A program made the position numbers and the translations under genes. The notes beneath the pieces are model-generated. The model made no database searches, was not told where the DNA came from, and worked only from the letters and a program-made list of their open reading frames with translations. A DNA stretch of 64,000 nucleotides from contig JAGOPY010000001.1 in the NCBI GenBank assembly GCA_017991835.1, positions 1-64,000 on the forward strand. The letters are read 5' to 3'. Origin of the DNA: Bacteroidales bacterium (GTDB lineage Bacteria > Bacteroidota > Bacteroidia > Bacteroidales > JAGOPY01). Of the stretch, positions 40,301 to 63,789 are shown one piece after another. The first letter of the stretch is position 1; every line of letters begins with the position of its first letter.

Positions 40301-40723
40301 CATCAGGTCGTTGATCATTCCCTGGAGGCCGAGGTCGCGCCCGTCGTCGGGTGAATAGATGCGGGTAATCCCGTACCGGTGGAGTTCTTCCATCTCTTCC
40401 GGAAGTATAACGCCGCCGCCGCCGCCGAAAATTTTAATATGGCCGCAACCCTTTTCGCGGAGCATGTCGAGCATGTATTTGAAGAATTCCATATGCCCGC
40501 CCTGGTAGGAGGTGATGGCAATGGCCTGGGCATCTTCCTGGATGGCGCAATCGACGATCTCTTTAACGGAGCGGTCGTGGCCCAGGTGGATCACTTCAGC
40601 GCCGGTGGCCTGGATGATCCTCCGCATGATGTTGATGGCGGCATCGTGCCCGTCGAACAGCGATGCGGCGGTCACAATGCGGATATGGTTCTTGGGGGAA
40701 TAAGGATTTTGTTCCGGGTGCAT
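37346..40723 (-). CDS. icmF: Fused isobutyryl-CoA mutase IcmF
   Basis: 1,125 aa from [17 protein letters not shown]; an upstream in-frame Met adds only a non-conserved tail. Domain order is that of IcmF: cobalamin-binding domain (~13-145, D24-G-H26 lower ligand), MeaI-like G domain with P-loop GTGGSGKSS (203-211), [27 protein letters not shown] and NKFDKRG, then the TIM-barrel acyl-CoA mutase domain ([48 protein letters not shown]). It interconverts isobutyryl-CoA and n-butyryl-CoA with adenosylcobalamin, linking valine-derived and straight-chain acids. No B12 riboswitch seen upstream. Confidence 0.96.
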
Positions 40724-40805
40724 GACAGATACGATATGAATAGCAAAAATATTAAAATTCGCGATCATCCGTATAAATCCGTGTCATCCGTGTGCTATCT
40801 TTTGA

Positions 40806-46797: not shown

Positions 46798-49700
46798 ATG
46801 AAAAAAGCGCTACTATTGGCAGGGTTTGTCATAATGTTGGCAGGCAATGCCGCTTTATCAGGCCAGCCGCTGAGCCCGGGGCTGAAAGTCCTCCCCCACG
46901 ATCAGCACCTAACCGCTGTTAACGGATCACACGAAGATCCCCTTTACCTGAACTACGGTTCTCCGGCCTTTAACCATCCTTCGTACTACTATGCGGCGGT
47001 GGCCTCGCCCGCAACGGGCATCTTTTACAGGCAAGCCGGACTGAGTCCCGATGGAACAAAAATCATAGCTCAGAAATCATTCACAGAAGGTTCGTTTAAC
47101 CGAACAGAAATTGTCCTGATGGATGCCGACGGGACTGACGAAATCATCATTTCCGCCGGCAATTCAGGAGAAGGTGATATTTACGGGTATATGAACCCAT
47201 TCTGGAGCGATGACGGCAATTACATCGGCTTCTGCGAAGTGCACAATACCAATGCTAATAAGGTAATGCGCTATCAATTATCTGCTTCCACGACGGAATA
47301 CATTTACGAGCCTGTAGATAATGATGTTTCGAATCCCGATTTTCTCGGAACTTCCATTACTTCCATTGTTTTCTGGGCTTATGGCCCTGCGGGAGGCGCA
47401 GACTTTTTCACTTGGGACGGTACCACGCTGACCAACATCACCAACACCGCCAATTATAAAGAGTACGAGCCGGTTTCAAATCCTGATGGCACGAAGATCC
47501 TTTTCTGGTCGGGGGAAACCACCGCAGAACCGGTGAACACCACCCATACGCTTACCTATTCGGGCGGAGTTTGGACCAAAGATGTCGGTTTTACCCCAAT
47601 TCCCGATACCTACTGGTCGTACTGGACCGATAACAGTTGCACGGAGATCGGTACAACGGTCATGTCAACAAAGGATATTGCCATTTATGACGATGAGGGC
47701 ACCTTCATGTATGATCTTACCGGCCCGGGGTACAGCGGGGGAAGCAACCAGTGGAACTTTTTCGGCTCGGGAATAAAGGGATTGAACGGCGAGATGCTGT
47801 TCACATCGAATGCTGGCAGAGCGGAAGCCGGAAGGGATATTGTCATGGCCAACCCGAGAGCAAAACTTTTTGTGGACGATAACGGTTCAGACGCATACCC
47901 CGGAACGGTCAATGCGCCGTTTGCCACGATTGGCAAAGGGATAAGCGAAGCCTTATCCGGAACGACACTGACCATTGAATCAGGGACTTATAATGAGACC
48001 ATCAATGGCGATAATAAGAATAACCTCAGCATTATCGGCAATGCCACAAACGAACCTGTCATCAATGGCAGTACCCATTTCTCACCCTGCAATGATCTTA
48101 CCCTTAAGAACCTGATCCTCAAGAATACAGTATCAACACCAATAGCTTACATCGGCGGTATAAACCTGACCATGGACAATGTAACTGTTGATGGTGAGGA
48201 TATAACCGGACACCACGGTATTTCAGGCGGTCATATAAACGGTGATGTGACTGTCACCAACTGCAGCTTCCTGAATATAAAAAACTGGGTGGCTTTTGAT
48301 ACAAGAAGCGGAAGCGGTGGCCCAACTACAGGCGCATTGCTCGAGGATGTAATATTTACAGGCAATCTTATTGATGATTGCCAGGGTCATATAAATTTCC
48401 GTGGTACCATCGGATTTGAAACAGATAACGTTACCATTACCGGGAACACTGTCCAGAACACCGGGTCGTCAACCAACAGCTTCGGGGCAGCTATAAAAGT
48501 CCTTTATGCCACTAATTGCATATTTTCCGGAAATACGATAAAAGATGTCGGAACCAGCGGCTATAACCCGGCGGGTGAGGCTCCGTACGGTGCGGGTTTC
48601 ATGCCGCGCAATGTGGCCAGCCTGACTGTAACCGGCAACACCTTTGAAAATAACAATCAGGCAATCGCCATTGAACCCAGGAACAGTGTCCAGGGAGGTT
48701 ATCCGGATGGTGTATTGCCCGCTGGAACCATAGCAAATAACATTTTTAATAATAATACTTACGGAATTTACATTCCGGCCACCCTCTATCCGAACAGCAA
48801 TCCTGCAGGTCTATCACTCGAAAACCACAACAAATTCAACAATTCCGGCGAGGCATTGCATTTTGGTTACGGTGCAGGAATGATCAACGCAGAGGAAAAC
48901 TATTGGGGTACCGAAGTCCCTGACGAGGTTGAACTGGAAATTTCCGGCAATGCGGATTACGATCCCTGGTGCAATGCCGACCTGAGCGTTTGCGGATTTA
49001 CGGAAACTTCCAATATCTACAACGAAAACCAGGAGACCTACTTCCTGACTGTCCAGGATGCCATCAATGCCGCTTCGATCGGCGATGTGATTGAAATTAC
49101 GGGCACCCACAATGTGAAAAACCTGGTGGTGAACAAAGGGTTGAAGATCGCGGCCGCGGCAGGCGGAGCTCACTTCAGCGGGCTTGACGCATCCCGCAGC
49201 GGAACAGGGGTTGTGGTTACCGACGATGCCCGGATCACCGGCATCACCTTCTCCGATTACGATATTGCCGTCGACATCCAGTCGGGCGCTGCATCGATCG
49301 CCAATTGCACATTCTACAACAATGTGATTGCCGTGAAGAACCTGGCCGCCAACCCGGTTGCCGACGCCGATTCCTGCTTCTGGGGAGATCCCACGGGGCC
49401 CTCCGACAACAGCCCCGCCGGCCTTTACAACCCGCTGGGGGCGGGTGATGAGGTGACCGATTATATCGACTACCAGCCCTGGTACAACGATATCGGCCAG
49501 ACCCTGCTCGCGGTGGATATCAAAATCACCAATCCATCCTGCAATACCCTGAATGTCTATCTGAAAAGCAACCAGGCCTTTGCAGGCAACCTGACCAATA
49601 TCCAGTTTGCCGTCAAATGGGATGCTTCGGTATATAATGGCATCGTCACCCCAACTTTTAAATATGGCAGCGCCGGCGAAGGGTATATCGACCTGGTCAA

Positions 49701-51555
49701 ATATGAAAACAACGGCGGATCGAAGTACGCTGTATTCGTCTATTACGGAGGCATTGCCTCCAACTGGGCGGAAGGCGGCGAGGTGCTGATCCTGACCCTG
49801 GAACTCGATGAATCGGGTGCGATGTACAATACCACCGGCTTTGAGATTGCACAGGACGCATTCGTTTCGGGCGCCAATGAAAATTATTATATCCAGCTCG
49901 ACGGCGATGACCGTACCGGTTATATTTATGGCTTCGCGGAAGATGTGTACACCGCCACGTGTGATATGCCTCTCGATGCCAAAGTATTCCTGCAGGGTCC
50001 GTACGACATCTATACCGACCTGATGAAAACCGACCTGGCCGGGGTGATCCCCACCGGCGACTATCCGGCAGGAAGACAGCCTTTTACCGGTAATCCCTGG
50101 CTTTACAATGGCACAGAAAACCTGGGATCGGTGCCGGCCGGCATGGTCGACTGGGTGCTGGTGGAACTTCGTACGGGAACGGGAGCCGGAACGATGGCCT
50201 ACCGCCAGGCAGGCCTGTTGTTCAGCGACGGCACGATCCGGAGCGCAGCCGACCCTGCCAAAGACATCTTCTTTGCTTCCGATCCTACCGGTTTAATGCC
50301 GAATTCCGATTTCTACATTGTGGTTTATCACCGCAACCACATGCCCGTCATGAGCGGTGCACCGGTCAATATTCCTAACAGCGCCATGCTGAACCTGACC
50401 GATCTCACCCAGACTTACGGTTATATTCCGGCGAGCGCTGTCGAACAGCCGCTCATCACCCTCGAGACGGGGGTTTACGGTATGATCGCGGGCGACCACT
50501 ACGGGGCCATACCGGCAGGCGAAGGGTGGAGCTACTTCGATTACCCCGACGGCTGGCTTTACTACAGCGGCAACCCGAACGACCGCGACCCGATCCTGGC
50601 CAGGATTGTGAGCGTGAGCGGCCTGCCCTATATCAATGGGGTGATCAACAATGTTTACTACAAAGAAGACCTGACGATGAACAGGCAGGTCAAATACTCA
50701 GGATCGGGCAACGATCCGAGGCTGATCATTCAGAACCTGATCGAGCTGAAGGGATCCAATGTGTTAACGAACTTCTATGAATCAAAAGTCCCTGGGTGGG
50801 CTATCCCGCACGTTAAAAAAGAGGGCCTACTATCCATGACTGGCCCCCTGGATATTGGCCTGTACGAAGCCCCCCGGGAGCTTTTGATCAACATAACCGC
50901 CAACGAAACATTCACAGGCGCCATGGTGTCGAACATTCAGTTCACCCTTTGCTGGGATGAAAACAACCCGGAAGCTGGCCGGTTAATAGCCGGTTACCAG
51001 AGCGACTTCCTGCTCGAACCCCAGGGCGAACCTGTAAAGTTCGCAGGAAAGATTTACCAGGTATTTGCCACAGTCGAACCGGTAGCATTGCCCGATCCGC
51101 TGAACAGCGGCGAGCAGGTGACCGTAATGCGGTTTGCCAAAAGTGATGCGGCGCCCGTGGCAGCCAATGGAGTGGCCATAGCCGACAATGCCTGGACGCT
51201 GGCCAACAACGGCGGATATTATATCGCTGTCTGGGGTGCCGGCCAGACCGGCCGTATCGTGACCGGAGCACTGGGGGCAGACCAGCCCGGCGATCCCGGT
51301 CCGGTGGTCCGTATATATCCCAATCCGACGGCGACCGGCTGGATCTACCTAACGACAAATCCGGCGGTTTCCGAAAACCTGGCAGTCAGGCTGACCGATC
51401 TGACCGGCAGGCAGCTCCGCCAATGCCAGTGGAGTGTAAAACCAGGGATGGCCAATGCCATTACTTTCGACCTGGAAGGCCTGAGCCATGGAGCTTATCT
51501 GCTGAATATCAGCGGCGAATCCTTCAGTTTCTCCGAAAGGATCATTATCCGGTAG
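46798..51555 (+). CDS. Giant T9SS surface protein A (propeller, beta-helix, NIQF modules)
   Basis: 1,585 aa. Signal peptide MKKALLLAGFVIMLAGNAALSG. PD40-like propeller (~60-350). Right-handed beta-helix (~356-720, LFVDDNGSDAYPGTVNAPFATIGKGISEAL then many N/T/G-rich coils). Second short helix (~735-900). NIQF module 1 (~905-1047), GPY/VDWVLVELR module (~1058-1215), dockerin-like pair (~1228-1320, first loop degenerate), NIQF module 2 (~1350-1488), and T9SS type A tail (VRIYPNPTATGWIYL...GAYLLNISGESFSFSERIIIR). First large gene after the sigma54 promoter. Probably adhesive or scaffold-like; no catalytic residues identified. Confidence 0.88.
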   Translation: MKKALLLAGFVIMLAGNAALSGQPLSPGLKVLPHDQHLTAVNGSHEDPLYLNYGSPAFNHPSYYYAAVASPATGIFYRQAGLSPDGTKIIAQKSFTEGSFNRTEIVLMDADGTDEIIISAGNSGEGDIYGYMNPFWSDDGNYIGFCEVHNTNANKVMRYQLSASTTEYIYEPVDNDVSNPDFLGTSITSIVFWAYGPAGGADFFTWDGTTLTNITNTANYKEYEPVSNPDGTKILFWSGETTAEPVNTTHTLTYSGGVWTKDVGFTPIPDTYWSYWTDNSCTEIGTTVMSTKDIAIYDDEGTFMYDLTGPGYSGGSNQWNFFGSGIKGLNGEMLFTSNAGRAEAGRDIVMANPRAKLFVDDNGSDAYPGTVNAPFATIGKGISEALSGTTLTIESGTYNETINGDNKNNLSIIGNATNEPVINGSTHFSPCNDLTLKNLILKNTVSTPIAYIGGINLTMDNVTVDGEDITGHHGISGGHINGDVTVTNCSFLNIKNWVAFDTRSGSGGPTTGALLEDVIFTGNLIDDCQGHINFRGTIGFETDNVTITGNTVQNTGSSTNSFGAAIKVLYATNCIFSGNTIKDVGTSGYNPAGEAPYGAGFMPRNVASLTVTGNTFENNNQAIAIEPRNSVQGGYPDGVLPAGTIANNIFNNNTYGIYIPATLYPNSNPAGLSLENHNKFNNSGEALHFGYGAGMINAEENYWGTEVPDEVELEISGNADYDPWCNADLSVCGFTETSNIYNENQETYFLTVQDAINAASIGDVIEITGTHNVKNLVVNKGLKIAAAAGGAHFSGLDASRSGTGVVVTDDARITGITFSDYDIAVDIQSGAASIANCTFYNNVIAVKNLAANPVADADSCFWGDPTGPSDNSPAGLYNPLGAGDEVTDYIDYQPWYNDIGQTLLAVDIKITNPSCNTLNVYLKSNQAFAGNLTNIQFAVKWDASVYNGIVTPTFKYGSAGEGYIDLVKYENNGGSKYAVFVYYGGIASNWAEGGEVLILTLELDESGAMYNTTGFEIAQDAFVSGANENYYIQLDGDDRTGYIYGFAEDVYTATCDMPLDAKVFLQGPYDIYTDLMKTDLAGVIPTGDYPAGRQPFTGNPWLYNGTENLGSVPAGMVDWVLVELRTGTGAGTMAYRQAGLLFSDGTIRSAADPAKDIFFASDPTGLMPNSDFYIVVYHRNHMPVMSGAPVNIPNSAMLNLTDLTQTYGYIPASAVEQPLITLETGVYGMIAGDHYGAIPAGEGWSYFDYPDGWLYYSGNPNDRDPILARIVSVSGLPYINGVINNVYYKEDLTMNRQVKYSGSGNDPRLIIQNLIELKGSNVLTNFYESKVPGWAIPHVKKEGLLSMTGPLDIGLYEAPRELLINITANETFTGAMVSNIQFTLCWDENNPEAGRLIAGYQSDFLLEPQGEPVKFAGKIYQVFATVEPVALPDPLNSGEQVTVMRFAKSDAAPVAANGVAIADNAWTLANNGGYYIAVWGAGQTGRIVTGALGADQPGDPGPVVRIYPNPTATGWIYLTTNPAVSENLAVRLTDLTGRQLRQCQWSVKPGMANAITFDLEGLSHGAYLLNISGESFSFSERIIIR

Positions 51556-51589
51556 CCCCCCGGACCGGATAACAGGCCTGCCTCTCTTA

Positions 51590-51620
51590 GCCCGCTGCAG
51601 GCGATTATTCTGCAGCGGGC
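51590..51620 (+). terminator. Hairpin between surface-protein genes A and B
   Basis: Perfect 11-bp stem GCCCGCTGCAG (51590-51600) with its complement (51610-51620), 9-nt loop. No T tract follows, so it may stabilise or attenuate the transcript rather than end it. Confidence 0.5.
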
Positions 51621-51700
51621 GAGGGAGGGGTATCTGAATCTGTGCACTGACACAAACCAATTAAATAACAACATTTTCAAATCTCAAAAAACAAAAAATT

Positions 51701-54700
51701 ATGAAAAGAAGATTACTGGTAATGCTAATTTTCGGTTTAGCATTGAGTAGTGTCTGGTCGCAAACGACCCGATACGTAAACCCCGACGGCAACTGCGGAG
51801 GCAGCACTCCCTGTTACACGACCATCCAGGCTGCCATTAATGCATCTGTTGATGGAGACATCATAATGATTTCTGCGGGAACCTTCACAGAAACGCTGAA
51901 TGTAGGTAAATCGCTGACTTTCATCGGATCCGGGCCGGTATCCAATCCGACCACGATCATTACATCGACAGCCAATCCCATGATCCAGTTATCAGTCACC
52001 AATAAAAATTTCACCTTTCAGAACCTGATCATTGAAGGGAATGTGACAAATAACGGTATCAGGGCCGGTGGCTCCATCAACATTAATTCACTGACATTAA
52101 AAGATTTCATCGGAAGAAATTGCCAGGTGGCACTTTACCTGGCAGAATACTGGCCCGGTGATGATCCTCTGACCACCACAGTCAGCAGTTTAAGCTTTGA
52201 TAATGTCACTATGACAAACAATAAATTCATCGGCGTCTATATCGGGAAAACAGTACTGTCAGGGACAGTGACCAATTCGACGTTTACCGGTAATGGATAT
52301 TCGGATGAATTACCAGCTAGCTGGCAAAAAACCGGCCTGCAATTTGTAAACTTTGATGAAGCATCGGTACCTCATGTAGTGGTCACAAATTCCACTTTTT
52401 CCAATAACGGAACAGGCGCTTCCAATATCGAAAGGACGGGGCTCATCATCTATACAGCCTACAATGCGCTCAGTGCCAATGAGATCATGACTGTATCCGG
52501 CTGCACCTTTACCAATCATCCTCAATATGCAGTGAGGATAAAGAATGGGTATAATGTAGGAAATACAGCAACCGTAAATGGAACTTTCACGAATAACTAC
52601 CTGGATATCTGGTTTAATAATATAATCGGGACCACCACATCCACTACTCTTGTTAGAAATACATTTTTGGGGACCAGGACTGTTGGTCCGGGTCCTACTT
52701 ATGATTACAACACGATCCAGGCCGCCATCAATGCCGCCGCAGCCGGAGATATCGTCAGGGTTTCTGACGGCACCTACAATGAAAACGTGACCGTTAACAA
52801 GAATATCAGCCTGTTATCGGTCAACGGTGCGGCTGTAACCACTATCGACGGGTTGAATTCCGGCGGTGAACTGGGAACGGTTTACCTGACGGCAGGAAGG
52901 GATGGCGTGACCATTGGGGATACCGGCCAGGGCTTTACCATCAAAGGAATTGACGGTACACCCGGACTTGAAAAAGCGGCAATTTATCTCCAGGGTGCCC
53001 AAACCAATATCACCATTGAAGGAAACATCATTGAAGCGAGAGGTGACGCCGGCTTACAAGGTGAGTACAATGCTGCCAACGACAACATCATCATCCATAA
53101 TAACCAGTTCACCGGACAGACCTTTACAGGAGCTAATCCCGCGGGGGTTGGGTTTGCTGCTCAATTTGACCTGCCGAATGTTCCCAGGCAACTGGTTGTA
53201 TTTGGCGGCGGATCAGGCACCACAAACACCCAGAACATCAATTTCACCAATAACACTGTATCAGGGATTGCCGGAGGGATGAGCATTACGGATAATAGCG
53301 GCAATCCTATCCCACCCACACCCCAGGGCAACACGATGGTCACACTTGACCTGGTGGGCACCAATTCCATCATGTGGAATACATTCAGCGGGACCACCAC
53401 CCGGTATGCCGAAGCTTTACGCGTAAGAGGAGCCGGCACCTACACTATCACCGGGAATAATTTCAATGGCAGCTATCCTGCGAATATAACCGCAGGCACG
53501 ACAGTAGCCGCAACTGGTATTGCCCGCATAGCGGATGCCTGGATGAACAATACGTTTCTGAAAGGTGTGGTACTTCAGGATAACGCATCGAATGTCAAGA
53601 TCAACAATATTCCAACCTCAATCCAGTCTTGCATTGATCAGGCAGGTTCGACCGATATCGTCAGAATAAAACCGGGGACGTATATCGAGCAGGTATACAT
53701 AAACAAGAACGACATCAATATCTTCGGAAGCGGCAAGGAAATTACGTTTATCAAGTCTCCCGCCACGCTAACACTCTCCACGCCAGGAGGTAAAAAGCCG
53801 GTCGTCTATTTCGATGCTTGTACAGGGACAACGCTGGGCCTTGTTACCGTCGACGGGGATGGCAAGGGCAATGCAAATAACTCCTTTGTCGGTGTCGGTT
53901 TTTGGAACTCAGGCGGTGGATTGAGCAGCGTGGATGTCATTGGCGTCAGGGATACGCCATTTTCGGGAGCCCAGCATGGTGTTGGAGTTTATGCCTACAA
54001 CAATACCGGCGGACCGTATTCAATGTATTTAGAAAATGTTTCGGTTTCCGATTTCCAGAAGAACGCATTTGCCCTGAGCGGCAATGGTTTGAGTGTTACG
54101 CTGAATGGTATAACGGTTACCGGCGCCGGCTCCACCTCGGTCACGGCTCAAAACGGCATCCAGATCGGATATGGAGCAACCGGATCTGTGACCAACAGCA
54201 GCGTGACAGGCATCCACTATATCGACAATATTCCGCCTGTCGACTGGACGGCAACGGCCATCCTCCTTTACGATGCAGGAAATATTGACATTTCCTCAAC
54301 AACTGTTTCCAATTCTCAGACCAATATTTACTTTATTGATGGTTCCGGAAGCTTAAACAACTGCACTGTCAATAATCCTGTGGCTGATATTTGGGCAAAT
54401 GGCGTGGATATTTATGCTTCCAGTGCCAAAGGCCGTTCAGATACGGGATTAAGAAATGCCATTCAGCCGTTCATAGAAGATTACAAGGGTACAGGCGCGA
54501 GGACGGCAGCTACCTTAACCATCAACAACAGCACCATTACCGGAATAGATTATGCCGGCAATTACGGGGTAGGCACGTATGCTGAAGGCACAATAAATAT
54601 GACGGTGACGAACAGCGCCGTGACCGGATGGGATTATGCCATCTCTTCTTATGAAGCCGGAGGTATTGTCAATGCCATTGTCAATGATAATGATCTTTCG

Positions 54701-57358
54701 GATAATACTGTCGGTTATTATTATAACGGAACGACTTTGCAGGATGCCGAAGACAACTGGTGGGGCCATTCTTCGGGCCCGCTGGATGCTTCCGATGATG
54801 CCGGCGGACTTTACAATCCGCTGGGTGAAGGAGGTGAAGTGTCGGATTATGTCGATTATGATCCCTGGTATGCCGATGCAGCCCAGACTTACCAGGCTAC
54901 AACAGAACAGACAAACATCCTGAACGAAGACCAGGGCGTTTATTACTACACTATCCAGGATGCCATTAACGGAGCCGATATCGGCGATGTGCTCGAAATA
55001 ACCGGCACCCACAACGTGAAGAACATCGTGGTCAACAAAGGGCTGAAGATCGCGGCAGCTGCCGGCGGAGCCAAATTCAACGGGCTCGACGGCACGCGCA
55101 GCGGAACCGGATTCACCATCAACACCACCGAACCGGTCGTATTTGAAGGGGCCACCTTCGAAAATTATGACCTGGCCATCGACTTTGTTGCCTTCGGCTC
55201 AGCCAGGATCGATGATTGCAAATTCCTTAACTGTGTAGTGGCTGTCAATAACCAGACTACCACCACCATCGATGCGGACACCAACTACTGGGGGCATGCG
55301 ACAGGGCCGCTGGATGCCAGCCCGGCCGGATTGTACAACCCCTATGGCCAGGGTAGCACGGTGACCGATTATGTCGATTACCAGCCCTGGTACAACAGCG
55401 AAGATATTGACGTATTGCCCGTCGATATTGCGGTTTATAATCCTTCATGCGGTCATATTGAGATCAGGGTAACTCCGAACAGCAATATGAACGGTCAGCT
55501 CACCACGGCTTTGTTCGCCGTGAAATGGCTGAATGCAAGCTACCCCGAACCGGCAATTCTGACCAACGTCACTTCGGCTTACAATATGGACTTCCAGTAT
55601 TATGAAACCGTCGGAGCGGCCAGGTATGCCGTGTTCGGACTGGAGACCAATGCCCTGGTCAACTGGACAGCAGGTACCGAGTATGTTTTCGTGGAATTTG
55701 ATGTCCAGCAGAACCAGCCCGAAGGCACCGTCAGCGATTTTGAGATCGCCAACGATGCCTGGGCCGCAGCCAACAATGCGCTCTATTACATGGAGTTCTG
55801 GGGTTCGGACTACACCGGTTACATCAACGGCTTTGCCGATGATGTCTACCTGGCCGACTGCGATCTGCAACTTCATCTCAAAGCATTCCTCCAGGGACCT
55901 TACAACACGACGACCAACGAAATGAAAACGGATCTGAACGCTTTCATTCCGCTGAACCAGCCCTTTAACGTCGCCCCGTGGAATTATAACGGAGGCGAAA
56001 GCATCACCGCTGTTCCCGCCAATATGGTCGACTGGGTCCTGGTTGAGCTCAGGACGGTGGCCGACGGCGCCCCGGCAGCCAGAAAAGCGGCATTGCTGTT
56101 CAAGGACGGTACGGTGAAAAGCCATGTGGACTCGTTCTTCGATGTCTATTTCACTGGTGATTTCATGCCCAATGCCGACTACTTTGTCGTTCTGACCGCG
56201 CGTAACCATATGCCCGTCATGTCGGCGGCTGTGGTAAACATTCCCAATGCCGGCGACCGTTACGATTTCTCGAACATGACCGGTTATCCTTCCTACGGAG
56301 GGCCAACCGCACAGGTCCTGCTCGAGCCGGGTGTCAACGGTATGATCTCGGGCGATGTCAATAAAGACGGTAAACTGATCTACAGCGGTACCAACAACGA
56401 CCGCGACCCGATCCTGGCCAAAATCGTCACCGTGACCAGTGATCCTTACATCAACGGCGTGATCCAGGGCTATTACCAGGAAGACCTGACCATGAACTCG
56501 TGGGTGAAATACAGCGGCTCGGCCAACGACCAGCGGCTTATCATCCTGAACATCATCGAGCTGACCGGCATGTACAACCTCAATGAACAATACAACACGG
56601 TGGTTCCGGGTGCTGTTCTGAAATCCGGTTACAGTAATCCGGGCACAGGCCCTGTCGATATCAAGCTTGTTGAGTACGAAAACAGCCTGGATGTCGAGAT
56701 GACGACCAAAGCCGACTTTACCGACAGCTATGTCACCAATATCCAGTTCACCCTTTCATGGGACGGTAACAACCCTATGATGGACGCGATTGTGGATGAT
56801 TATGTGACCGATTACAAACTGGAACCGCAGGGAACCGTCACGGAAAATAACGGCCGTCACTACCTGACATTCGTTATGGCCGAAGCGGTCCTGTTGCCCG
56901 TCGAATTCAGGCAGGGCGACAAGCTCACGGTGCTCAGCTTCGACAAGTCCAGCTTTGCCGGACAGGTCACCAAATCGACCCTTGCCAACGACAATTACAC
57001 CTTGCAGACCAATGGCGATTACTACATCTCGATTATCGGCACAGACCGGACGGGTGTAGTGACAGCAGGCGTTACCGGAATCCCGGATCTATCCGCGGGC
57101 AACAGTATGCTCCAGGTGTACCCGAATCCGGCGAGCCAGGGATTTGTCAATATCGCCTTCATGCCCGAAACGGATGAGACTGTGACCATCACCCTGACCG
57201 ATGTCAGCTCGCGGACTGTCGGTGTGCAGAATATGCAGGTGAGCAAAGGGATTCCGGTTGTTAAAAAGGTCGATATCAGCGGTCTATCCGGAGGGATTTA
57301 CTTCATTAACGTGAAAGGAAATCAAATCTTCCAAACCGGTAAAATTGAAATCCGGTAA
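51701..57358 (+). CDS. Giant T9SS surface protein B (multiple beta-helices, NIQF modules)
   Basis: 1,885 aa. Signal peptide MKRRLLVMLIFGLALSSVWSQ. Four right-handed beta-helix domains each open with a TIQ/SIQ-type start: YTTIQAAINASVDGDIIMISAGT (~37), YNTIQAAINAAAAGDIVRVSDGT (~338), SIQSCIDQAGSTDIVRIKPGT (~640) and YTIQDAINGADIGDVLEITGT (~1083). NIQF module 1 ~1239-1377, GPY/VDWVLVELR module ~1385-1535, dockerin-like pair ~1546-1625 (GDVNKDGKL, then EDLTMNSWVKYSG), NIQF module 2 ~1651-1790, and T9SS type A tail from LQVYPNPASQGFVNIAF. The C-terminal half is a paralogue of protein A. Confidence 0.88.
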   Translation: MKRRLLVMLIFGLALSSVWSQTTRYVNPDGNCGGSTPCYTTIQAAINASVDGDIIMISAGTFTETLNVGKSLTFIGSGPVSNPTTIITSTANPMIQLSVTNKNFTFQNLIIEGNVTNNGIRAGGSININSLTLKDFIGRNCQVALYLAEYWPGDDPLTTTVSSLSFDNVTMTNNKFIGVYIGKTVLSGTVTNSTFTGNGYSDELPASWQKTGLQFVNFDEASVPHVVVTNSTFSNNGTGASNIERTGLIIYTAYNALSANEIMTVSGCTFTNHPQYAVRIKNGYNVGNTATVNGTFTNNYLDIWFNNIIGTTTSTTLVRNTFLGTRTVGPGPTYDYNTIQAAINAAAAGDIVRVSDGTYNENVTVNKNISLLSVNGAAVTTIDGLNSGGELGTVYLTAGRDGVTIGDTGQGFTIKGIDGTPGLEKAAIYLQGAQTNITIEGNIIEARGDAGLQGEYNAANDNIIIHNNQFTGQTFTGANPAGVGFAAQFDLPNVPRQLVVFGGGSGTTNTQNINFTNNTVSGIAGGMSITDNSGNPIPPTPQGNTMVTLDLVGTNSIMWNTFSGTTTRYAEALRVRGAGTYTITGNNFNGSYPANITAGTTVAATGIARIADAWMNNTFLKGVVLQDNASNVKINNIPTSIQSCIDQAGSTDIVRIKPGTYIEQVYINKNDINIFGSGKEITFIKSPATLTLSTPGGKKPVVYFDACTGTTLGLVTVDGDGKGNANNSFVGVGFWNSGGGLSSVDVIGVRDTPFSGAQHGVGVYAYNNTGGPYSMYLENVSVSDFQKNAFALSGNGLSVTLNGITVTGAGSTSVTAQNGIQIGYGATGSVTNSSVTGIHYIDNIPPVDWTATAILLYDAGNIDISSTTVSNSQTNIYFIDGSGSLNNCTVNNPVADIWANGVDIYASSAKGRSDTGLRNAIQPFIEDYKGTGARTAATLTINNSTITGIDYAGNYGVGTYAEGTINMTVTNSAVTGWDYAISSYEAGGIVNAIVNDNDLSDNTVGYYYNGTTLQDAEDNWWGHSSGPLDASDDAGGLYNPLGEGGEVSDYVDYDPWYADAAQTYQATTEQTNILNEDQGVYYYTIQDAINGADIGDVLEITGTHNVKNIVVNKGLKIAAAAGGAKFNGLDGTRSGTGFTINTTEPVVFEGATFENYDLAIDFVAFGSARIDDCKFLNCVVAVNNQTTTTIDADTNYWGHATGPLDASPAGLYNPYGQGSTVTDYVDYQPWYNSEDIDVLPVDIAVYNPSCGHIEIRVTPNSNMNGQLTTALFAVKWLNASYPEPAILTNVTSAYNMDFQYYETVGAARYAVFGLETNALVNWTAGTEYVFVEFDVQQNQPEGTVSDFEIANDAWAAANNALYYMEFWGSDYTGYINGFADDVYLADCDLQLHLKAFLQGPYNTTTNEMKTDLNAFIPLNQPFNVAPWNYNGGESITAVPANMVDWVLVELRTVADGAPAARKAALLFKDGTVKSHVDSFFDVYFTGDFMPNADYFVVLTARNHMPVMSAAVVNIPNAGDRYDFSNMTGYPSYGGPTAQVLLEPGVNGMISGDVNKDGKLIYSGTNNDRDPILAKIVTVTSDPYINGVIQGYYQEDLTMNSWVKYSGSANDQRLIILNIIELTGMYNLNEQYNTVVPGAVLKSGYSNPGTGPVDIKLVEYENSLDVEMTTKADFTDSYVTNIQFTLSWDGNNPMMDAIVDDYVTDYKLEPQGTVTENNGRHYLTFVMAEAVLLPVEFRQGDKLTVLSFDKSSFAGQVTKSTLANDNYTLQTNGDYYISIIGTDRTGVVTAGVTGIPDLSAGNSMLQVYPNPASQGFVNIAFMPETDETVTITLTDVSSRTVGVQNMQVSKGIPVVKKVDISGLSGGIYFINVKGNQIFQTGKIEIR

Positions 57359-57382
57359 TATCAAAACGGTTAATACCTGTTC

Positions 57383-57434
57383 AGCGTGATACGAAGGAGA
57401 AGTGATCTTCGGGTCACTTCTCCGGAAACACGCT
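57383..57434. terminator. Two-stem hairpin between surface-protein genes B and C
   Basis: Outer stem AGCGTG/CACGCT (57383-57388 with 57429-57434) and inner perfect stem GGAGAAGTGA/TCACTTCTCC (57396-57405 with 57414-57423). No T tract. Likely partial terminator or mRNA stabiliser. Confidence 0.5.
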
Positions 57435-57484
57435 CATGCAAAACATGCTGATTCAATTCTTATCTAAACTAAAGGAAAAGTAAA

Positions 57485-60364
57485 ATGAAGATGAAGAGGG
57501 CCAGGACAATTTTCATACTGATAACATCGATTAGTTGCTTTTTCCACAACCCGGGCCGGCCAGCCGAAGTTATACCCGTAACCGACCATCCGTCGCGGCT
57601 GGCGCCGGGCCCGGTCATGCTGTGCAATCCGCAAAGCGTCAACTTGTTTGTGGATGACGACTTTACGCCGGCAACGCCGGGATATGGAACCACTCATTTT
57701 TCAGCTATAAATGATGCCCTGCTGGTTGCCGGTGAAAATGACCTGATCAACCTGTACGATGGGACCTACGCGGAGGTCATCACAATCTCTGCTGCCGTCA
57801 CGCTGGCCGCCATCCCCGGCGAAAATCCGGTTCTGGACGGTACCGGGATGCCGGGGACAACGGCTGTGACCGTAGGCGTTCCCGGTGTATCGATAGATGG
57901 TTTGACCATCCGGAATTATGATTACGGCATTGTTCTGACCGGAACAGGAACTGCGGAGATCGTGAACTGCAGGATCTGCGATAACCTGGTCTTCGGCATA
58001 CAGAACCAGAACGCGAACGTTGATTGCGTAGCCGGAAATTGCTGGTGGGGCGAGCCTTCCGGGCCGTCAGACTACTCAGACGACCGGGAAACCGGGGGGC
58101 TCTATAATCCCGGCGGCCTCGGCAACCCGGTGTCGGATCATGTGCTGTATTATCCCTGGTCGGTGAATGAAGAGTTCACCCAGCTACCCGTTGAGTTTGG
58201 CATTTACAATACGGCCTGCGGAGCGCTGGAGGTGCGCCTCAAACCCCTTTCCGGCATCAACAGTACCCTCACCATGCTGACTTTTTCCGTCAGGTGGGCC
58301 GGTGATCCGGTAACCCTTGAAAATATCAGCTCTCCCGGGTTTAATCTCGAACTGGTCAACCTGGCCATGGGCGCAGGCGGGTTCAATTACGCTGTGTTTG
58401 GTTCCGATGGGTTCGTACCGGTTGAATTTATCCCCGGTGAAGCGATCCCGGTTCTCACCTTTACACTTGATGGCAGCGGCATCGGATTCAGTGATTTCGA
58501 AATTGCCACAGATTCCTGGACTGTCGCCAACAACGCCAATCCCTACCTGGAACTCATGGGAACCGACTATTCCGGAGCCGTTTACCATAACGCCCCTGAT
58601 GTTTACATGGATGATTGCGAAAATGCCGAATTCCAGGCAAGCGTGTTGCTCGACGGGCCTTACGACAGCCTGACGAACCTGATGCGCACGGAACTCCAAC
58701 CCCTCATTCCCCTGAATCAGCCGTATAACTTTCTTCCATGGATGTACACGGGGAGCGAGTCGCTGACAGCCATCCCGGCCGGTATGGTAGATTGGGTTTT
58801 GGTTGAGCTGAGATCGACACCTGCAGGACCGCCTGCCGACAGAAGCGCCGGCATTTTGATGAACGACGGAAAGATACTGGATGCCGGCCTTGACGGATCC
58901 ATCCGGTTTGACGGGATAGTGCCCTCATCGCCTTATTATGTAGTGATCCATCACCGCAACCATCTCCCGGTGATGAGCCGGGATCCTGTTATAATACCCA
59001 ATCCCCTGCTTTTCGATTTTTCCGATACGCTCAATTTTCCTCCTTACGGCACCGGGAAAAAAGCCCTGGTAAGTCTGGAAAACGGCGTCAGCGGGATGAT
59101 ACCGGGCGATATCAATAACGATGGCAGGCTGAAATACAGCGGGCCCGCCAATGACCGCGGGCTGATCATGAATCTGATCTATTACGTGACCGGTGAGCCG
59201 GTTATTACCCAAACCATTGAAGGCTATTACAAAGAAGACCTGACCATGAACCGGATCGTGAAATACAGCGGTCCGAACAACGACGCGCGGGAGATCATCC
59301 TGAGCCTGGTGGAACTGACCGGCTCAACGGCGCTGAACTCCGTATTTCAATGTGTGGTTCCGGGCAGCACGATGGCTGCTTCGGGCCGGCAGCCGGTTCC
59401 GCCGGCCAGCGGCATGTCGTCGCAATACGCCGATATCGGCATCTTTGAACATACCGGCCCGGATGAGCTGGTTATCCGGATCCGCCCGGATCATGATATT
59501 CCCGGATACGGGCTGACCAACATCCAGTTTACCCTGCGCTGGCCCGAAACCAGCAGCGTTTACCAATTATGGCCCGCTGCCAGCCCGGTCAATTCGGCCT
59601 TCAATATCCAGCCCCAGGGCCCTGTGACACTCGACAACGGCTATTATCACCAGATATTTGCCGCAGCGAATAACACCATCCTGAACTGGACCCAGGACAC
59701 CGAATACCCGGTCCTGGTTCTGAAATATTTATACTCGACAGAAGACTGCACCGGCTTTGAGATTACCGAAGATGCCTGGACCGTCGCCAATAACGGGACC
59801 TATTATTTTGAAGTGATCGGGCAAAACCGGACGGGAATCCTGTATCAACCGGAGGTTCAGATCCTCTCAGAAGGCGGATCGGTCAACGGCTCCGGGGAGA
59901 TCTGCCTGGGCTCCTCCACCGGTATCATGATCCTGGCAAGCTTCAGCGGCGATGTGGCAAGATGGCAGAGAAGCACCGACGGCGGCGGAACCTGGAGCGA
60001 CATCCCCGGCACATCCGGCATAACATCTTATAGCGAAACACCGCCGGAAGAAGGCTCTTACATGTACCGGGCCGAAGTCGTCAAATTCGGCTGTTCGGCT
60101 GACTTTTCAGCGCCTGCTACCATTGACGTCATGGGAGATGCCATCTGGACAGGCAATACCGACAGCAACTGGAACGATCCCTCCAACTGGAACGTTTGCG
60201 GCGTACCGACCATCTCCAAGGATGTCATCATCCCCGATGTATCGCCAAAACCATTCCCGGTGGTAAACGTAACTGCTTACTGCAAATCGATCCGAATCCA
60301 ATCCGGTGCAACGGTGACGGTCAGCCTGACCGGTTCGGTCATCATCGGAAACAATACGCCTTAA
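57485..60364 (+). CDS. Secreted protein C (beta-helix, NIQF modules, no T9SS tail)
   Basis: 959 aa. Signal segment MKMKRARTIFILITSISCFF, after which mature sequence begins. Short beta-helix (~55-215), NIQF module 1 (~233-368), GPY/VDWVLVELR module (~378-530), dockerin-like pair (~537-614: GDINNDGRLKYSG, EDLTMNRIVKYSG), and NIQF module 2 (~649-788). An Ig-like segment follows, and a final WTGNTDSNWNDPSNWNVCGVP domain of the type common in Bacteroidota secreted proteins. It lacks the T9SS tail of A, B and E, so it may be exported by Sec only or held by partners. Confidence 0.82.
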   Translation: MKMKRARTIFILITSISCFFHNPGRPAEVIPVTDHPSRLAPGPVMLCNPQSVNLFVDDDFTPATPGYGTTHFSAINDALLVAGENDLINLYDGTYAEVITISAAVTLAAIPGENPVLDGTGMPGTTAVTVGVPGVSIDGLTIRNYDYGIVLTGTGTAEIVNCRICDNLVFGIQNQNANVDCVAGNCWWGEPSGPSDYSDDRETGGLYNPGGLGNPVSDHVLYYPWSVNEEFTQLPVEFGIYNTACGALEVRLKPLSGINSTLTMLTFSVRWAGDPVTLENISSPGFNLELVNLAMGAGGFNYAVFGSDGFVPVEFIPGEAIPVLTFTLDGSGIGFSDFEIATDSWTVANNANPYLELMGTDYSGAVYHNAPDVYMDDCENAEFQASVLLDGPYDSLTNLMRTELQPLIPLNQPYNFLPWMYTGSESLTAIPAGMVDWVLVELRSTPAGPPADRSAGILMNDGKILDAGLDGSIRFDGIVPSSPYYVVIHHRNHLPVMSRDPVIIPNPLLFDFSDTLNFPPYGTGKKALVSLENGVSGMIPGDINNDGRLKYSGPANDRGLIMNLIYYVTGEPVITQTIEGYYKEDLTMNRIVKYSGPNNDAREIILSLVELTGSTALNSVFQCVVPGSTMAASGRQPVPPASGMSSQYADIGIFEHTGPDELVIRIRPDHDIPGYGLTNIQFTLRWPETSSVYQLWPAASPVNSAFNIQPQGPVTLDNGYYHQIFAAANNTILNWTQDTEYPVLVLKYLYSTEDCTGFEITEDAWTVANNGTYYFEVIGQNRTGILYQPEVQILSEGGSVNGSGEICLGSSTGIMILASFSGDVARWQRSTDGGGTWSDIPGTSGITSYSETPPEEGSYMYRAEVVKFGCSADFSAPATIDVMGDAIWTGNTDSNWNDPSNWNVCGVPTISKDVIIPDVSPKPFPVVNVTAYCKSIRIQSGATVTVSLTGSVIIGNNTP

Positions 60365-60387
60365 TCATTACATAAATTATTATTAAG

Positions 60388-61401
60388 ATGAAATCTAAAG
60401 GGCCAGTTTATTTATTCATCTTTCTGCTGCTGATCTCCCATAAAAGCCTTACCGGGCAGGATAAGATCGATATCGGAATTTTTGAATCGCCCGTGCAGGA
60501 CACGCTGGTGCTGAAATGCCGGCCGAACTACACTATCCCGGTGGGATATTACATCACCAACATCGTGTTTACCATAAAATGGCCGGAAACGAGCCCCGTT
60601 ACCCAGCTCCAGAATATTGTTTCCACCGTTAACTCTTACTACCAGATCACGCCTCAGCAATTTTCCGTCAATGGAGGATACCGGTACCAGGTTTACTCGA
60701 TGGTCGGGGCGAAAAATGTTACCTGGAGCGCCAACCAGGAATACCCGGTACTTGAGATCCGGGTGAATTATCCGGGAGGGTGCACCAACCTTGAGATTGC
60801 CAATGATTCCTATACCAATTTCGTTTTGAACGGAGCTTATTATATTTCGATAACCGGTTCGAATAAAACGGGAATCCGGTATCAGCCATCGGTCAGCCTG
60901 ATCTCGCAAGGAGGCGTGGTAACGCCGGATGAATCCCTATGCCTCGGCAGCAGTACTTCCGTGATGATCTTATCGGGCTATTCGGGAAATATCCTGATGT
61001 GGCAGAAGAAACACGATTCCTTTGGCTGGATCAATATTTCAGGAACGGCGGGGATGTGGGAATATTTCACCACGCCCGATTCATCGGGCACATACCGCTA
61101 CAGGGCCGTGGTAAAAAGGGGGAGCTGCGATACGGCCTATTCGACGGCCAATGTAGTTGGCGTGGCGGTAAACTCCGTCTGGACGGGCAGCGCCGACACA
61201 TTGTGGCATAATCCCTCGAACTGGAATGCCTGCGGAGTGCCCGCAGCCAGCCGGGATGTCGAAATTCCGGCCGTGGCCGGTGGATTATATCCGGCCATTA
61301 CGGCGCCCGGCGTTTGCAAATCCTTGCTGATCCGATCGGGAGCCACATTGAAATTAAAAGGTTCAGGGAGCCTGGACATCGACGGTACACTGGTAAAATA
61401 A
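60388..61401 (+). CDS. Secreted protein D (single NIQF module, no T9SS tail)
   Basis: 337 aa. Signal peptide MKSKGPVYLFIFLLLISHKSLTGQ; the mature protein begins immediately with one NIQF module (~27-167; DIGIFESP, ITNIVFTIKWPE, TGIRYQPS). An Ig-like segment (~170-260, CLGSSTSVMILSGYSGNILMWQKK) and a terminal WTGSADTLWHNPSNWNACGVP domain follow. This is a compact version of the C-terminal third of protein C. 23 bp after C. No T9SS tail. Confidence 0.8.
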   Translation: MKSKGPVYLFIFLLLISHKSLTGQDKIDIGIFESPVQDTLVLKCRPNYTIPVGYYITNIVFTIKWPETSPVTQLQNIVSTVNSYYQITPQQFSVNGGYRYQVYSMVGAKNVTWSANQEYPVLEIRVNYPGGCTNLEIANDSYTNFVLNGAYYISITGSNKTGIRYQPSVSLISQGGVVTPDESLCLGSSTSVMILSGYSGNILMWQKKHDSFGWINISGTAGMWEYFTTPDSSGTYRYRAVVKRGSCDTAYSTANVVGVAVNSVWTGSADTLWHNPSNWNACGVPAASRDVEIPAVAGGLYPAITAPGVCKSLLIRSGATLKLKGSGSLDIDGTLVK

Positions 61402-61440
61402 TTCGCATAGCAATCTTTTCCGGCCAAACAGACACTTAAT

Positions 61441-63789
61441 ATGAATTCCTGTAAAGTTATATCGTTCCTGGCAGTCACCTGCCTGATCACACTGCCGTCG
61501 TTTTCGCAGCAGGAAGAGATCGATGCGGGCATTTTTTCCGGCATGACCGCCGATACCCTTATTTTAAAGGCTAAACCCTCATTCACCCTTTCCGGTCAAT
61601 CCCTGACCAATGCACAGATAACGGTCAAATGGAGCCAGAACAGCCCGGTGACCTCCCTGCAATGGAATTACAGTCCGATCGGATTGTTCCCGCAGGGCCA
61701 GACGGAAATTTCGGAAGGATACCGGTACCAGGTTTACGGTTCTTTCGGCGGTTCGGGGATCAACTGGGTGGCCGGACAGGAATATGTTATCCTGAAACTG
61801 GTCACCAATTCACCATCGGGCTCCTGTACCGAGTTCCTGATTGCGCAGGATGACTGGACACAAAACAACAATGGCGATTATTACATGGAAGTTCTGGGAG
61901 AGGATAAGACGGGCCTTCTCTATGAGCCTTCGGTCAATTTTGGATCGGTCGGCGGAAATATTGTGAGCGATTCGGCGATCTATCTCGGCAACAGCACGGG
62001 GATCATGGAGCTGACCGGTTACAGCGGGGATATCGTCTACTGGGAAAGAAGCATTAACGACGGCGCCTGGGATATCCTTCCCGGCACTGCGGGACAGGCT
62101 CAGTTCGAAGATGTACCCACGATCGAAGGAACCTGGTCGTACCGGGTAAAGGTGGAGAAGCCGGGCTGCCAGCCGGTTTACTCAGCACCGGGCGATATCA
62201 CCGTGGAATTGCTCGCTATTTGGACCGGTGCTGTCAACAACTCCTGGGATGACCCGGGGAACTGGAACATCGCGGGAGTGCCGGATGAAAACCTCGATGG
62301 CCTGGTCCCGCAGACAGAGACCGGGATGTATCCTGTGATCAATGGTTATGAAAATGGCAAAAACCTGCTGATCGGTCCCGGCGCATCCCTGATCCTCTCA
62401 AAAGAAGGGGCTTTGACCTTGTCGGGATATCTTAAAAATGACGGCCTGTTCTCAATAGAGTCCGACACCGGGGCAAGCGCTTCATTACTGGATAACGGCA
62501 TCTCCGGTACAGGGGTGTTTGTCAGTTCCGTAATTTATACCCCTGGTTTACATCATCAAATTTCATCCCCGGTAATCCATTCTGCAAAAAATGCATTCGG
62601 GAATACGGACCTGTTTGAATGGAACGAGCCGCAGAATGAATATATCCCGGTGCCGGATGATGACGATACACTTGAAGTATTAAAAGGATACCTCGCCATA
62701 AATAATGATCAGGTAATGAATCCGGCGGTTTTTGAAGGGACCGGCCTGTTTTCCGGCATTTACTCTGCAGATTTCACCAATAACGGCGCCGGAAACGGAC
62801 ACGCCGGCGGTTTTAACCTCGCCGGAAATCCGTATCCTTCGGCCATGAACTGGAATGATGCGGAGAATGTGACTCTGTCGCAGGTTGATCCGGTCCTGTA
62901 CGTTTTGAATGGCGAGGCCGGCAATTTCGGTACGTTTATTCGCGGCGACCATGCCAGTTCCACATTGGGTATCGACAGCATTATCGGCACCCACCAGGGT
63001 TTTTTTGTGCATGTAAATCATGCTTCCGATTCCGGATCTCTGACGGTGAACAATGGGGCAAGATTTCACAACCCTCAGCCTTTGCGGGCGGCAACGGCAG
63101 CACGCTCTGATGATCCTGTCCTGAAATTAAAAGTATCCGGGCCTGAAGGTTCATTCAGAGATGAAATCATTGTAAGATTTCACTCGGAAGCATCGGAATA
63201 CTTTGACATTCAATATGATGCCTATGATCTGGAAGGGTTCCAAAATGCCCCGCAGGTATTCACCCGGTGTGCCGATACCCTGAGACTGGCTGTCAATACT
63301 TATCCTTCGCTGGATGCCAACCGGTCTGTTGTAATGGGTTTTCAATCCGGTGAAGCCGGAGAGTTTACCCTCGCGGTACAGGAACTGCTTAATTTTGGCA
63401 CGGATACGCTGGTATTTGTGGAAGATCTGATCCTTGACACGACATCCCGGGTTACCGAATCATTCCAATATGTTTTTGAGGGAACACCGTCCGACCCGGT
63501 CGACCGGTTCAGGCTTCACTTTATTGTGGATCCTGTTTTTGAAGATGAAGGAATTGTTCTTCCTGAGATTTCCATAACATTAGCAGGGCAGATAATCCGG
63601 GTTAATTTCGGCGGAGAGTCGCAGTTTGGTTATTTTGAATTGTTTGACCTGACCGGAAAACGGTTGATGAGCCAGAGGGTAACAGGGCCGGTTGCTATGA
63701 TCCATTTCCCGCTGGAAAGTGGCATGTATATAATCTGCATTAAATCTCAAAAAGCTGTTCTTGTAAAAAAGATCATAGCTTGCTTTTGA
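61441..63789 (+). CDS. Secreted protein E (NIQF module plus T9SS-type C-terminus)
   Basis: 782 aa. Signal peptide MNSCKVISFLAVTCLITLPSFSQ. NIQF module (~26-163: EIDAGIFSG, LTNAQITVKWS, DKTGLLYEPS), Ig-like segment (~165-255), WTGAVNNSWDDPGNWNIAGVP domain (~260-345), then the typical Bacteroidota region with FNLAGNPYPSAMNWNDAENV (~455-475). The terminal ~80 aa (QIIRVNFGGESQFGYFELFDLTGKRLMSQRV...LESGMYIICIKSQKAVLVKKIIACF) resemble a T9SS type A tail. 39 bp after D. Confidence 0.83.
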   Translation: MNSCKVISFLAVTCLITLPSFSQQEEIDAGIFSGMTADTLILKAKPSFTLSGQSLTNAQITVKWSQNSPVTSLQWNYSPIGLFPQGQTEISEGYRYQVYGSFGGSGINWVAGQEYVILKLVTNSPSGSCTEFLIAQDDWTQNNNGDYYMEVLGEDKTGLLYEPSVNFGSVGGNIVSDSAIYLGNSTGIMELTGYSGDIVYWERSINDGAWDILPGTAGQAQFEDVPTIEGTWSYRVKVEKPGCQPVYSAPGDITVELLAIWTGAVNNSWDDPGNWNIAGVPDENLDGLVPQTETGMYPVINGYENGKNLLIGPGASLILSKEGALTLSGYLKNDGLFSIESDTGASASLLDNGISGTGVFVSSVIYTPGLHHQISSPVIHSAKNAFGNTDLFEWNEPQNEYIPVPDDDDTLEVLKGYLAINNDQVMNPAVFEGTGLFSGIYSADFTNNGAGNGHAGGFNLAGNPYPSAMNWNDAENVTLSQVDPVLYVLNGEAGNFGTFIRGDHASSTLGIDSIIGTHQGFFVHVNHASDSGSLTVNNGARFHNPQPLRAATAARSDDPVLKLKVSGPEGSFRDEIIVRFHSEASEYFDIQYDAYDLEGFQNAPQVFTRCADTLRLAVNTYPSLDANRSVVMGFQSGEAGEFTLAVQELLNFGTDTLVFVEDLILDTTSRVTESFQYVFEGTPSDPVDRFRLHFIVDPVFEDEGIVLPEISITLAGQIIRVNFGGESQFGYFELFDLTGKRLMSQRVTGPVAMIHFPLESGMYIICIKSQKAVLVKKIIACF

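What the first reader, a model, noticed from the sequence alone, without database searches (positions are those of the whole stretch)
46798..61930. Eight copies of an uncharacterised ~140-aa module across five adjacent proteins
Each copy starts with D-I-x-(I/V/L)-(Y/F/T)-like strands, has (L/V/I)TNIQF(T/A)xxW about 30-40 residues in, and ends (E)IAxDxWTxxNNGxYYxExxGxDRTGxxY. Positions: A 905-1047 and 1350-1488, B 1239-1377 and 1651-1790, C 233-368 and 649-788, D 27-167, E 26-163. The pattern suggests a cohesin-like beta-sandwich, but I cannot prove that. In D and E the module forms the mature N-terminus.
Basis: seen in the sequence. Interest (0 to 1): 0.74.

Follow-up and report, generated by a model that had tools for sequence, protein, structure and literature searches.

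The report
Divergent cohesin–dockerin surface assembly cluster
The eight repeated modules have the predicted shape of cohesins (the sockets of bacterial cellulosomes), three of the same proteins carry the matching plug (a dockerin variant), and the same plug-and-socket gene pair recurs across the Bacteroidota phylum, apparently as a way to hold large secreted proteins on the cell surface.

Summary
Confirmed: eight copies of a ~140-aa module (M) lie where stated; in leave-one-out tests each is found by the other seven at E ≤ 6e-23. No Pfam, NCBIfam or PDB sequence family matches them. An AlphaFold2 model (pLDDT 94.5) gives a beta-sandwich whose 50 best PDB matches are all cohesins (best E 1.7e-4, TM about 0.5). 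Sequence profiles do not link M to PF00963, so M is a cohesin by predicted fold only.

X (~160 aa) is an unnamed domain; D is a double dockerin repeat with exactly four extra residues per loop (profile match to ordinary dockerins E 3e-11). Elsewhere X–dockerin ends proteins that lack a type IX sorting tail (78 of 82). The next gene usually encodes a protein starting with M or another cohesin-like domain and ending in a sorting tail. Dockerin type matches partner type: insertion dockerins are followed by M genes in 10/17 cases, ordinary ones in 0/45 (p = 2e-7).

Best reading: M are receptors for D, forming a type IX-exported cohesin–dockerin assembly; in A–C receptor and ligand are fused. Binding is inferred, not shown. 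I rate it a new variant of a known kind.

The parts
49510..49938 (+). protein A, module M copy 1 (aa 905-1047)
   Evidence: leave-one-out E 1e-25
49951..50469 (+). protein A, X domain
   Evidence: profile of A/B/C and relatives
50470..50796 (+). protein A, D: double dockerin-like repeat (first loop carries a further ~14-aa insertion)
50845..51264 (+). protein A, module M copy 2
   Evidence: leave-one-out E 5e-25
51313..51552 (+). protein A, T9SS type A sorting domain
   Evidence: PF18962 E 2.1e-8, TIGR04183 E 1.5e-8
55418..55831 (+). protein B, module M copy 1
   Evidence: leave-one-out E 7.7e-30
55850..56329 (+). protein B, X domain
56330..56611 (+). protein B, D: dockerin variant, two loops with +4 residues
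   Evidence: loop length by comparison
56651..57067 (+). protein B, module M copy 2
   Evidence: leave-one-out E 2e-29
57116..57346 (+). protein B, T9SS type A sorting domain
   Evidence: PF18962 E 3.5e-9
58187..58588 (+). protein C, module M copy 1
   Evidence: leave-one-out E 6.2e-23
58607..59083 (+). protein C, X domain (all-beta, pLDDT about 70-93 over most of it)
59084..59365 (+). protein C, D: dockerin variant; two predicted helices, low confidence
59426..59848 (+). protein C, module M copy 2 (the copy modelled)
   Evidence: AF2 pLDDT 94.5; Foldseek cohesins
60463..60885 (+). protein D, module M at the mature N-terminus
   Evidence: leave-one-out E 5.5e-34
61516..61926 (+). protein E, module M at the mature N-terminus
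   Evidence: leave-one-out E 2.4e-31
63604..63777 (+). protein E, T9SS type A sorting domain
   Evidence: TIGR04183 E 2.3e-6

Best explanation
M is a divergent cohesin and D a divergent dockerin that carries four extra residues in each calcium-loop repeat and follows a companion domain X. M domains are receptors for D. In most Bacteroidota examined the two partners are separate neighbouring genes: a (often very large) secreted protein ending in X-dockerin without a type IX sorting tail, then a smaller protein with an N-terminal cohesin-like domain and a type IX sorting tail that anchors it at the cell surface. In this window the pair has been multiplied and fused: A, B and C are beta-helix proteins that carry both receptor (M1, M2) and ligand (X-D); D and E are receptors whose M is at the free N-terminus. 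Together they could chain into a surface-bound array. Shown: repeats, predicted fold, dockerin relationship, gene pairing, type matching. Inferred: that M binds D, that the binding needs calcium, and that the product is a surface assembly.
For: AF2 model of M with pLDDT 94.5; top 50 PDB matches all cohesins, again mainly cohesins with a second model. D versus ordinary X-linked dockerin tails: hhalign probability 97.2, E 3.2e-11, eight column-shuffled controls at probability 0.4 or less. The pooled X-dockerin tail profile hits solved dockerins, including the CipA X-dockerin 2b59_B at E 6.5e-6. 11 of 41 tails match PF00404, best 3.9e-10. 78 of 82 X-D proteins show no sorting tail by my CTD profile, and PF18962 is not among the families listed for 41 tails. 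Next genes carry PF18962 in 36/64 cases versus 11/64 control genes from the same regions. Type matching: insertion dockerins followed by an M gene 10/17, ordinary 0/45, Fisher p 1.8e-7; own genome (C21 versus C6/C20) and G073 (L103/L104 versus L109) each hold both types, correctly matched. Slot equivalence: PF00963-type cohesins sit directly before X in own-genome L060_6509 and in L069_5611, where M sits in A-C and L069_805. Fusion: X-D and M-CTD are separate genes at C21, L036 and L037 but one chain in A and B. Scaffoldin-like M-M-M-X-D in L069 and L070. SprA, the T9SS translocon, is present in this genome.
Against: M shows no sequence-level relation to PF00963. TM-scores are only about 0.4-0.55 with rmsd mostly 5-7 A, so M could be a cohesin-shaped domain with another ligand. 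The D region of the model is low confidence (pLDDT 27-45) and the joint model says nothing about docking (pTM 0.38). Several insertion dockerins are followed by genes without a recognised M (L108, L117, L123, L129), and L071 has its M gene upstream. Many next-gene N-terminal domains were called cohesin-like by inspection; only 3 of 54 hit PF00963 (best E 0.0045) and 4 hit my cohesin profile at E < 0.01. Proteins C and D have no recognised sorting tail. Related lineages inflate the Fisher test.
Confidence: 0.64

Rival explanations
1. M is only a cohesin-shaped beta-sandwich spacer or adhesin domain (or a carbohydrate-binding jelly-roll); its nearness to dockerins reflects domain shuffling among secreted proteins, not binding.
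For: No sequence link to PF00963; moderate TM-scores; M often sits among beta-helix and Ig-like modules.
Against: Top 50 structural hits are exclusively cohesins. M genes follow insertion-type dockerin genes but not ordinary ones (10/17 versus 0/45). True cohesins occupy the same slot. M stands at the free N-terminus of the neighbouring CTD protein.
Confidence: 0.22
2. M2 and D in A-C pair within the same chain, as an internal clamp between the beta-helix and the CTD, so there is no intermolecular array.
For: D and M2 are separated by only about 12-20 residues in A-C, L068 and L070; own-genome proteins show the same Doc-Coh-CTD order.
Against: The joint AF2 model gave no confident docking (pTM 0.38), which is silence rather than evidence. 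M at the free N-terminus of D and E, and separate gene pairs elsewhere, argue for pairing between chains as well.
Confidence: 0.2
3. X-D is not a ligand but an unrecognised secretion or sorting tail that replaces the T9SS CTD, and the following gene is its dedicated processing or accessory factor.
For: X-D stands at the very C-terminus, where a CTD would be, in most proteins.
Against: In A, B, L030 and L070 X-D is internal and a real CTD follows. The tails have the two loop-helix repeats of dockerins. The partner's N-terminal M is a predicted cohesin fold.
Confidence: 0.08

Closest known systems
Cohesin domain (PF00963; cellulosomal types I-III and the Clostridium perfringens cohesins 2jh2, 2vo8)
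   Same: Predicted fold; tandem copies; placed before an X-dockerin pair; on surface-anchored proteins.
   Different: No detectable sequence similarity by Pfam or profile comparison; own conserved motifs (TNIQFTxxW, FEIAxDxWTxxNNGxYYxExxGxDxTG).
X-dockerin pair of cellulosomal scaffoldins (CipA 2b59/3kcp)
   Same: A beta domain directly N-terminal to a two-repeat dockerin at the protein's C-terminus; the pooled tail profile hits 2b59_B at E 6.5e-6.
   Different: X here is ~160 aa with its own motifs (LQGPY, VDWVLVELR, HRNHLPVM) and no Pfam match; homology to the cellulosomal X module was not shown. In this cluster each dockerin loop has four extra residues.
Cellulosome-like complex of Candidatus Stygibacter, phylum Cloacimonadota (PMC8542988)
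   Same: Dockerin-bearing secreted proteins plus a cohesin scaffoldin with a type IX C-terminal domain for surface attachment; likewise inferred from sequence.
   Different: Another phylum; recognised Pfam cohesins and dockerins on enzymes; no paired-gene organisation, X domain, insertion dockerin or M family described in the passages read.
T9SS type A sorting proteins (PF18962 / TIGR04183)
   Same: A, B and E end in this tail.
   Different: C, D and nearly all stand-alone X-dockerin proteins lack it.

Membership tests
Cohesin (PF00963) | matches the family sequence model | tested here: not met
   No PF00963 hit for any of the eight copies at E up to 10; hhalign versus own-genome cohesins E 0.064, a shuffled control 0.046
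Cohesin (PF00963) | jelly-roll beta-sandwich of cohesin topology | tested here: met
   AF2 pLDDT 94.5; top 50 PDB matches all cohesins, best E 1.7e-4, TM about 0.5; prediction only, one copy modelled by itself
Cohesin (PF00963) | encoded with dockerin partners | tested here: met
   X-D in A-C and upstream of M genes in L029, L036-L038, L069, L070, L072, L103, L104, L116
Cohesin (PF00963) | binds dockerin | not testable with these tools
   needs protein
Dockerin (PF00404) | two loop-helix (F-hand) repeats | tested here: met
   hhalign versus ordinary X-linked dockerin tails E 3.2e-11; two repeats; two predicted helices at low confidence
Dockerin (PF00404) | canonical 12-residue calcium loop | tested here: not met
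   conserved Asp at loop offset 15 instead of 11, i.e. +4 residues (same spacing in the window's D)
Dockerin (PF00404) | passes the Pfam cut-off | tested here: not met
   no PF00404 hit in A-C at E up to 1 nor in the window by genome search; 11 of 41 pooled X-linked tails do match at E up to 1
Dockerin (PF00404) | calcium-dependent folding | not testable with these tools
   needs protein
Type IX secretion substrate | signal peptide plus C-terminal sorting domain | tested here: inconclusive
   A, B and E met; C and D have no recognised CTD; SprA present in the genome
Cellulosome | scaffoldin with several cohesins | tested here: met
   M-M-M-X-D in L069 and L070; Coh x4-X-Doc in own genome
Cellulosome | dockerin-bearing glycoside hydrolases and carbohydrate-binding modules | not tested
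   the window proteins have only beta-helix (NosD/pectinesterase-like) and propeller-like regions; the genome was not surveyed for such enzymes

The most novel reading that the evidence does not exclude
Dockerin-bearing proteins without a sorting tail cross the outer membrane, or are held there, only by docking to the neighbouring cohesin-CTD protein: a piggyback route through type IX secretion that would extend the T9SS secretome to proteins no CTD search can find, with several mutually exclusive cohesin-dockerin codes per cell.
Probability: 0.2. Interest if true: 0.82.

Novelty: new variant of a known kind. Interest (0 to 1): 0.64.

Why it matters
Bacteroidetes genomes are commonly reported to lack cohesins and dockerins (for example PMC5831590). 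This work indicates that 42 of 296 sampled Bacteroidota genomes carry X–dockerin proteins, usually next to a partner that combines a cohesin-like domain with a type IX sorting tail. If right, it explains how large secreted proteins without a sorting tail stay on the surface, gives a function to two unnamed domain families (M, X), and adds an apparently orthogonal cohesin–dockerin pair that could be useful for protein assembly.

Tried and rejected
Pfam and NCBIfam scans of the five proteins and a PDB-sequence search with M: no relative. hhalign of M against PF00963-type cohesins: not significant, so no sequence homology is claimed. The D-variant profile alone found nothing in PDB; it needed the ordinary X-linked dockerins. 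The profile of next-gene N-terminal domains found nothing in PDB. The M versus next-gene-domain profile match (E 3.9e-6) was set aside because that set already contains M members. In one search two entries counted as insertion type (L061, L157) look misparsed, which works against the association.
Full report
OBSERVATION. An HMM of any seven finds the eighth at E 1.7e-38 to 6.2e-23; the best of 2000 shuffled modules reaches 0.006. In the 3.48-Mb genome there is one more, divergent, copy, on contig C21.

WHAT M IS. Nothing in Pfam, NCBIfam or PDB sequences matches M. A 28-sequence alignment of window copies and relatives gave an AF2 model of C copy 2 with pLDDT 94.5 and pTM 0.88, an almost all-beta domain. 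Foldseek against the PDB lists cohesins in all of the top 50 places: C. perfringens 2jh2 and 2vo8, C. thermocellum 1ohz and 2b59, Acetivibrio, Ruminococcus. TM-scores are only about 0.4-0.55. A separately aligned model of X–D–M2 again gives mainly cohesins. By sequence, M is not detectably related to the PF00963-type cohesins of the same genome (E 0.064; a shuffled control gives 0.046). So the cohesin claim rests on predicted fold and context.

Between the two M copies of A, B and C lie X (~160 aa: LQGPY, VDWVLVELR, HRNHLPVM) and D (~95 aa: two repeats DxNxDGxLxYSGxxNDRxxIL). Relatives in other families of the order show the same cassette (L032, which is the same contig as L068; L030; L070). 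In others, X is followed by an ordinary dockerin (own genome C6: SADIDNDGEVFAGDVGIFLN…SDLDLDGEVFAGDVYYLLLN). D and these ordinary tails are clearly related (hhalign probability 97.2, E 3.2e-11; controls at or below 0.4). The pooled profile finds PDB dockerins and 11 of 41 tails match PF00404. D differs by exactly four residues in the loop: the conserved Asp stands at offset 15 instead of 11. Protein A's first loop has a further insertion.

GENE PAIRS. X–D occurs in 42 of 296 sampled Bacteroidota genomes, M in 4 of 296 and in 8 of 60 mostly same-order relatives. In the loci examined, 78 of 82 X–D proteins lack a type IX tail by my CTD profile and mostly end at the dockerin; the exceptions are fused forms like A and B. 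The gene that follows, usually within 200 nt or overlapping, generally has a signal peptide, an N-terminal ~150-aa beta-rich domain and a C-terminal sorting domain. PF18962 is found in 36 of 64 next genes against 11 of 64 control genes, CHU_C in 15 against 5, FlgD_ig in 12 against 6 (one gene can match several). In own-genome C20 the partner instead ends in a transmembrane segment. Some of these N-terminal domains match M (nine at E < 0.01), some my cohesin profile (four at E < 0.01), and three of 54 weakly PF00963. Most of the rest were judged cohesin-like by eye.

TYPE MATCHING. Among stand-alone X–D genes with an identified next gene, insertion-type dockerins are followed by an M gene in 10 of 17 cases and ordinary dockerins in 0 of 45 (p 1.8e-7). 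Two of the seven exceptions look misparsed and one has its M gene upstream. Relatedness inflates the p-value, but two single genomes, G000 and G073, contain both kinds and match them correctly. This is the pattern expected if each dockerin type fits its own cohesin type. One ordinary-dockerin gene (L069_5611) is followed by an M–X–Doc gene; it was left out of the count because that next gene itself carries X–D.

MECHANISM. Shown: the repeats, the fold prediction, the dockerin relationship, the gene pairing, the type matching, and fusion of parts that elsewhere are two genes (C21, L036, L037 against A, B). Inferred: M binds D; the partner with the sorting tail (type IX machinery is present: SprA) anchors the tail-less X–D protein; A–E build a chained surface array, analogous to a scaffoldin (M-M-M-X-D in L069 and L070 is the layout of Coh-Coh-Coh-X-Doc). 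How tail-less dockerin proteins cross the outer membrane is open; riding on the cohesin–CTD partner is the most novel possibility.

KNOWN OR NEW. The closest published idea found is the cohesin scaffoldin with a type IX C-terminal domain plus dockerin enzymes in Cloacimonadota (PMC8542988). Open-access literature on Bacteroidetes states that such parts are absent (PMC5831590) or, for two cellulolytic soil species, not found (PMC6247017). Further searches found no description of the paired organisation; subscription journals were not searchable, and Peer et al. 2009 on non-cellulosomal cohesins and dockerins could not be read. I file it as a new variant of the cohesin–dockerin kind, not as a member of PF00963.

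Noticed in passing
window about 60137-60361 (end of C) and about 61174-61398 (end of D); also own genome C1:75074-76264 (L058_13075): Three proteins without a CTD end at the same point of a WTGxxxxxWNDPxNWNxCGVP...CKSLxIxSGATLxV module with two cysteines; in E the same module is internal, lacks the cysteines and runs on to a CTD. Possibly an unrecognised C-terminal anchor.
   Followed up: partly
own genome C1 from about 63853 (directly after E; L058_1827_3836): The next gene starts with a PF00963-like cohesin (E 1.5e-4, below cut-off) and ends in a tail resembling a type IX sorting domain, so the cluster mixes M-type and ordinary cohesins.
   Followed up: partly
L061_1530_2375 (own genome C20): The cohesin-like partner of an X-dockerin protein ends in IPLSDWSLYLAIGLMVILSLFIYRRRISG, a PEP-CTERM/IPTL-like membrane anchor instead of a type IX tail.
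   Followed up: no
M copy 1 of A, B, C; tandem M of L069 and L070: A cysteine near the start of the module and one just after its end, suggesting a disulphide closing the domain; absent from the M2 copies of A and B.
   Followed up: no
L058_5961, L058_8528, L060_10617 (own genome): Other secreted proteins of this genome have the order dockerin-cohesin-CTD (by inspection), parallel to D-M2-CTD in A and B.
   Followed up: partly
window 37346-40768, minus strand: A 1140-aa ORF that looks like a fused B12-binding / MeaB-like GTPase / acyl-CoA mutase (IcmF-like), by inspection only.
   Followed up: no
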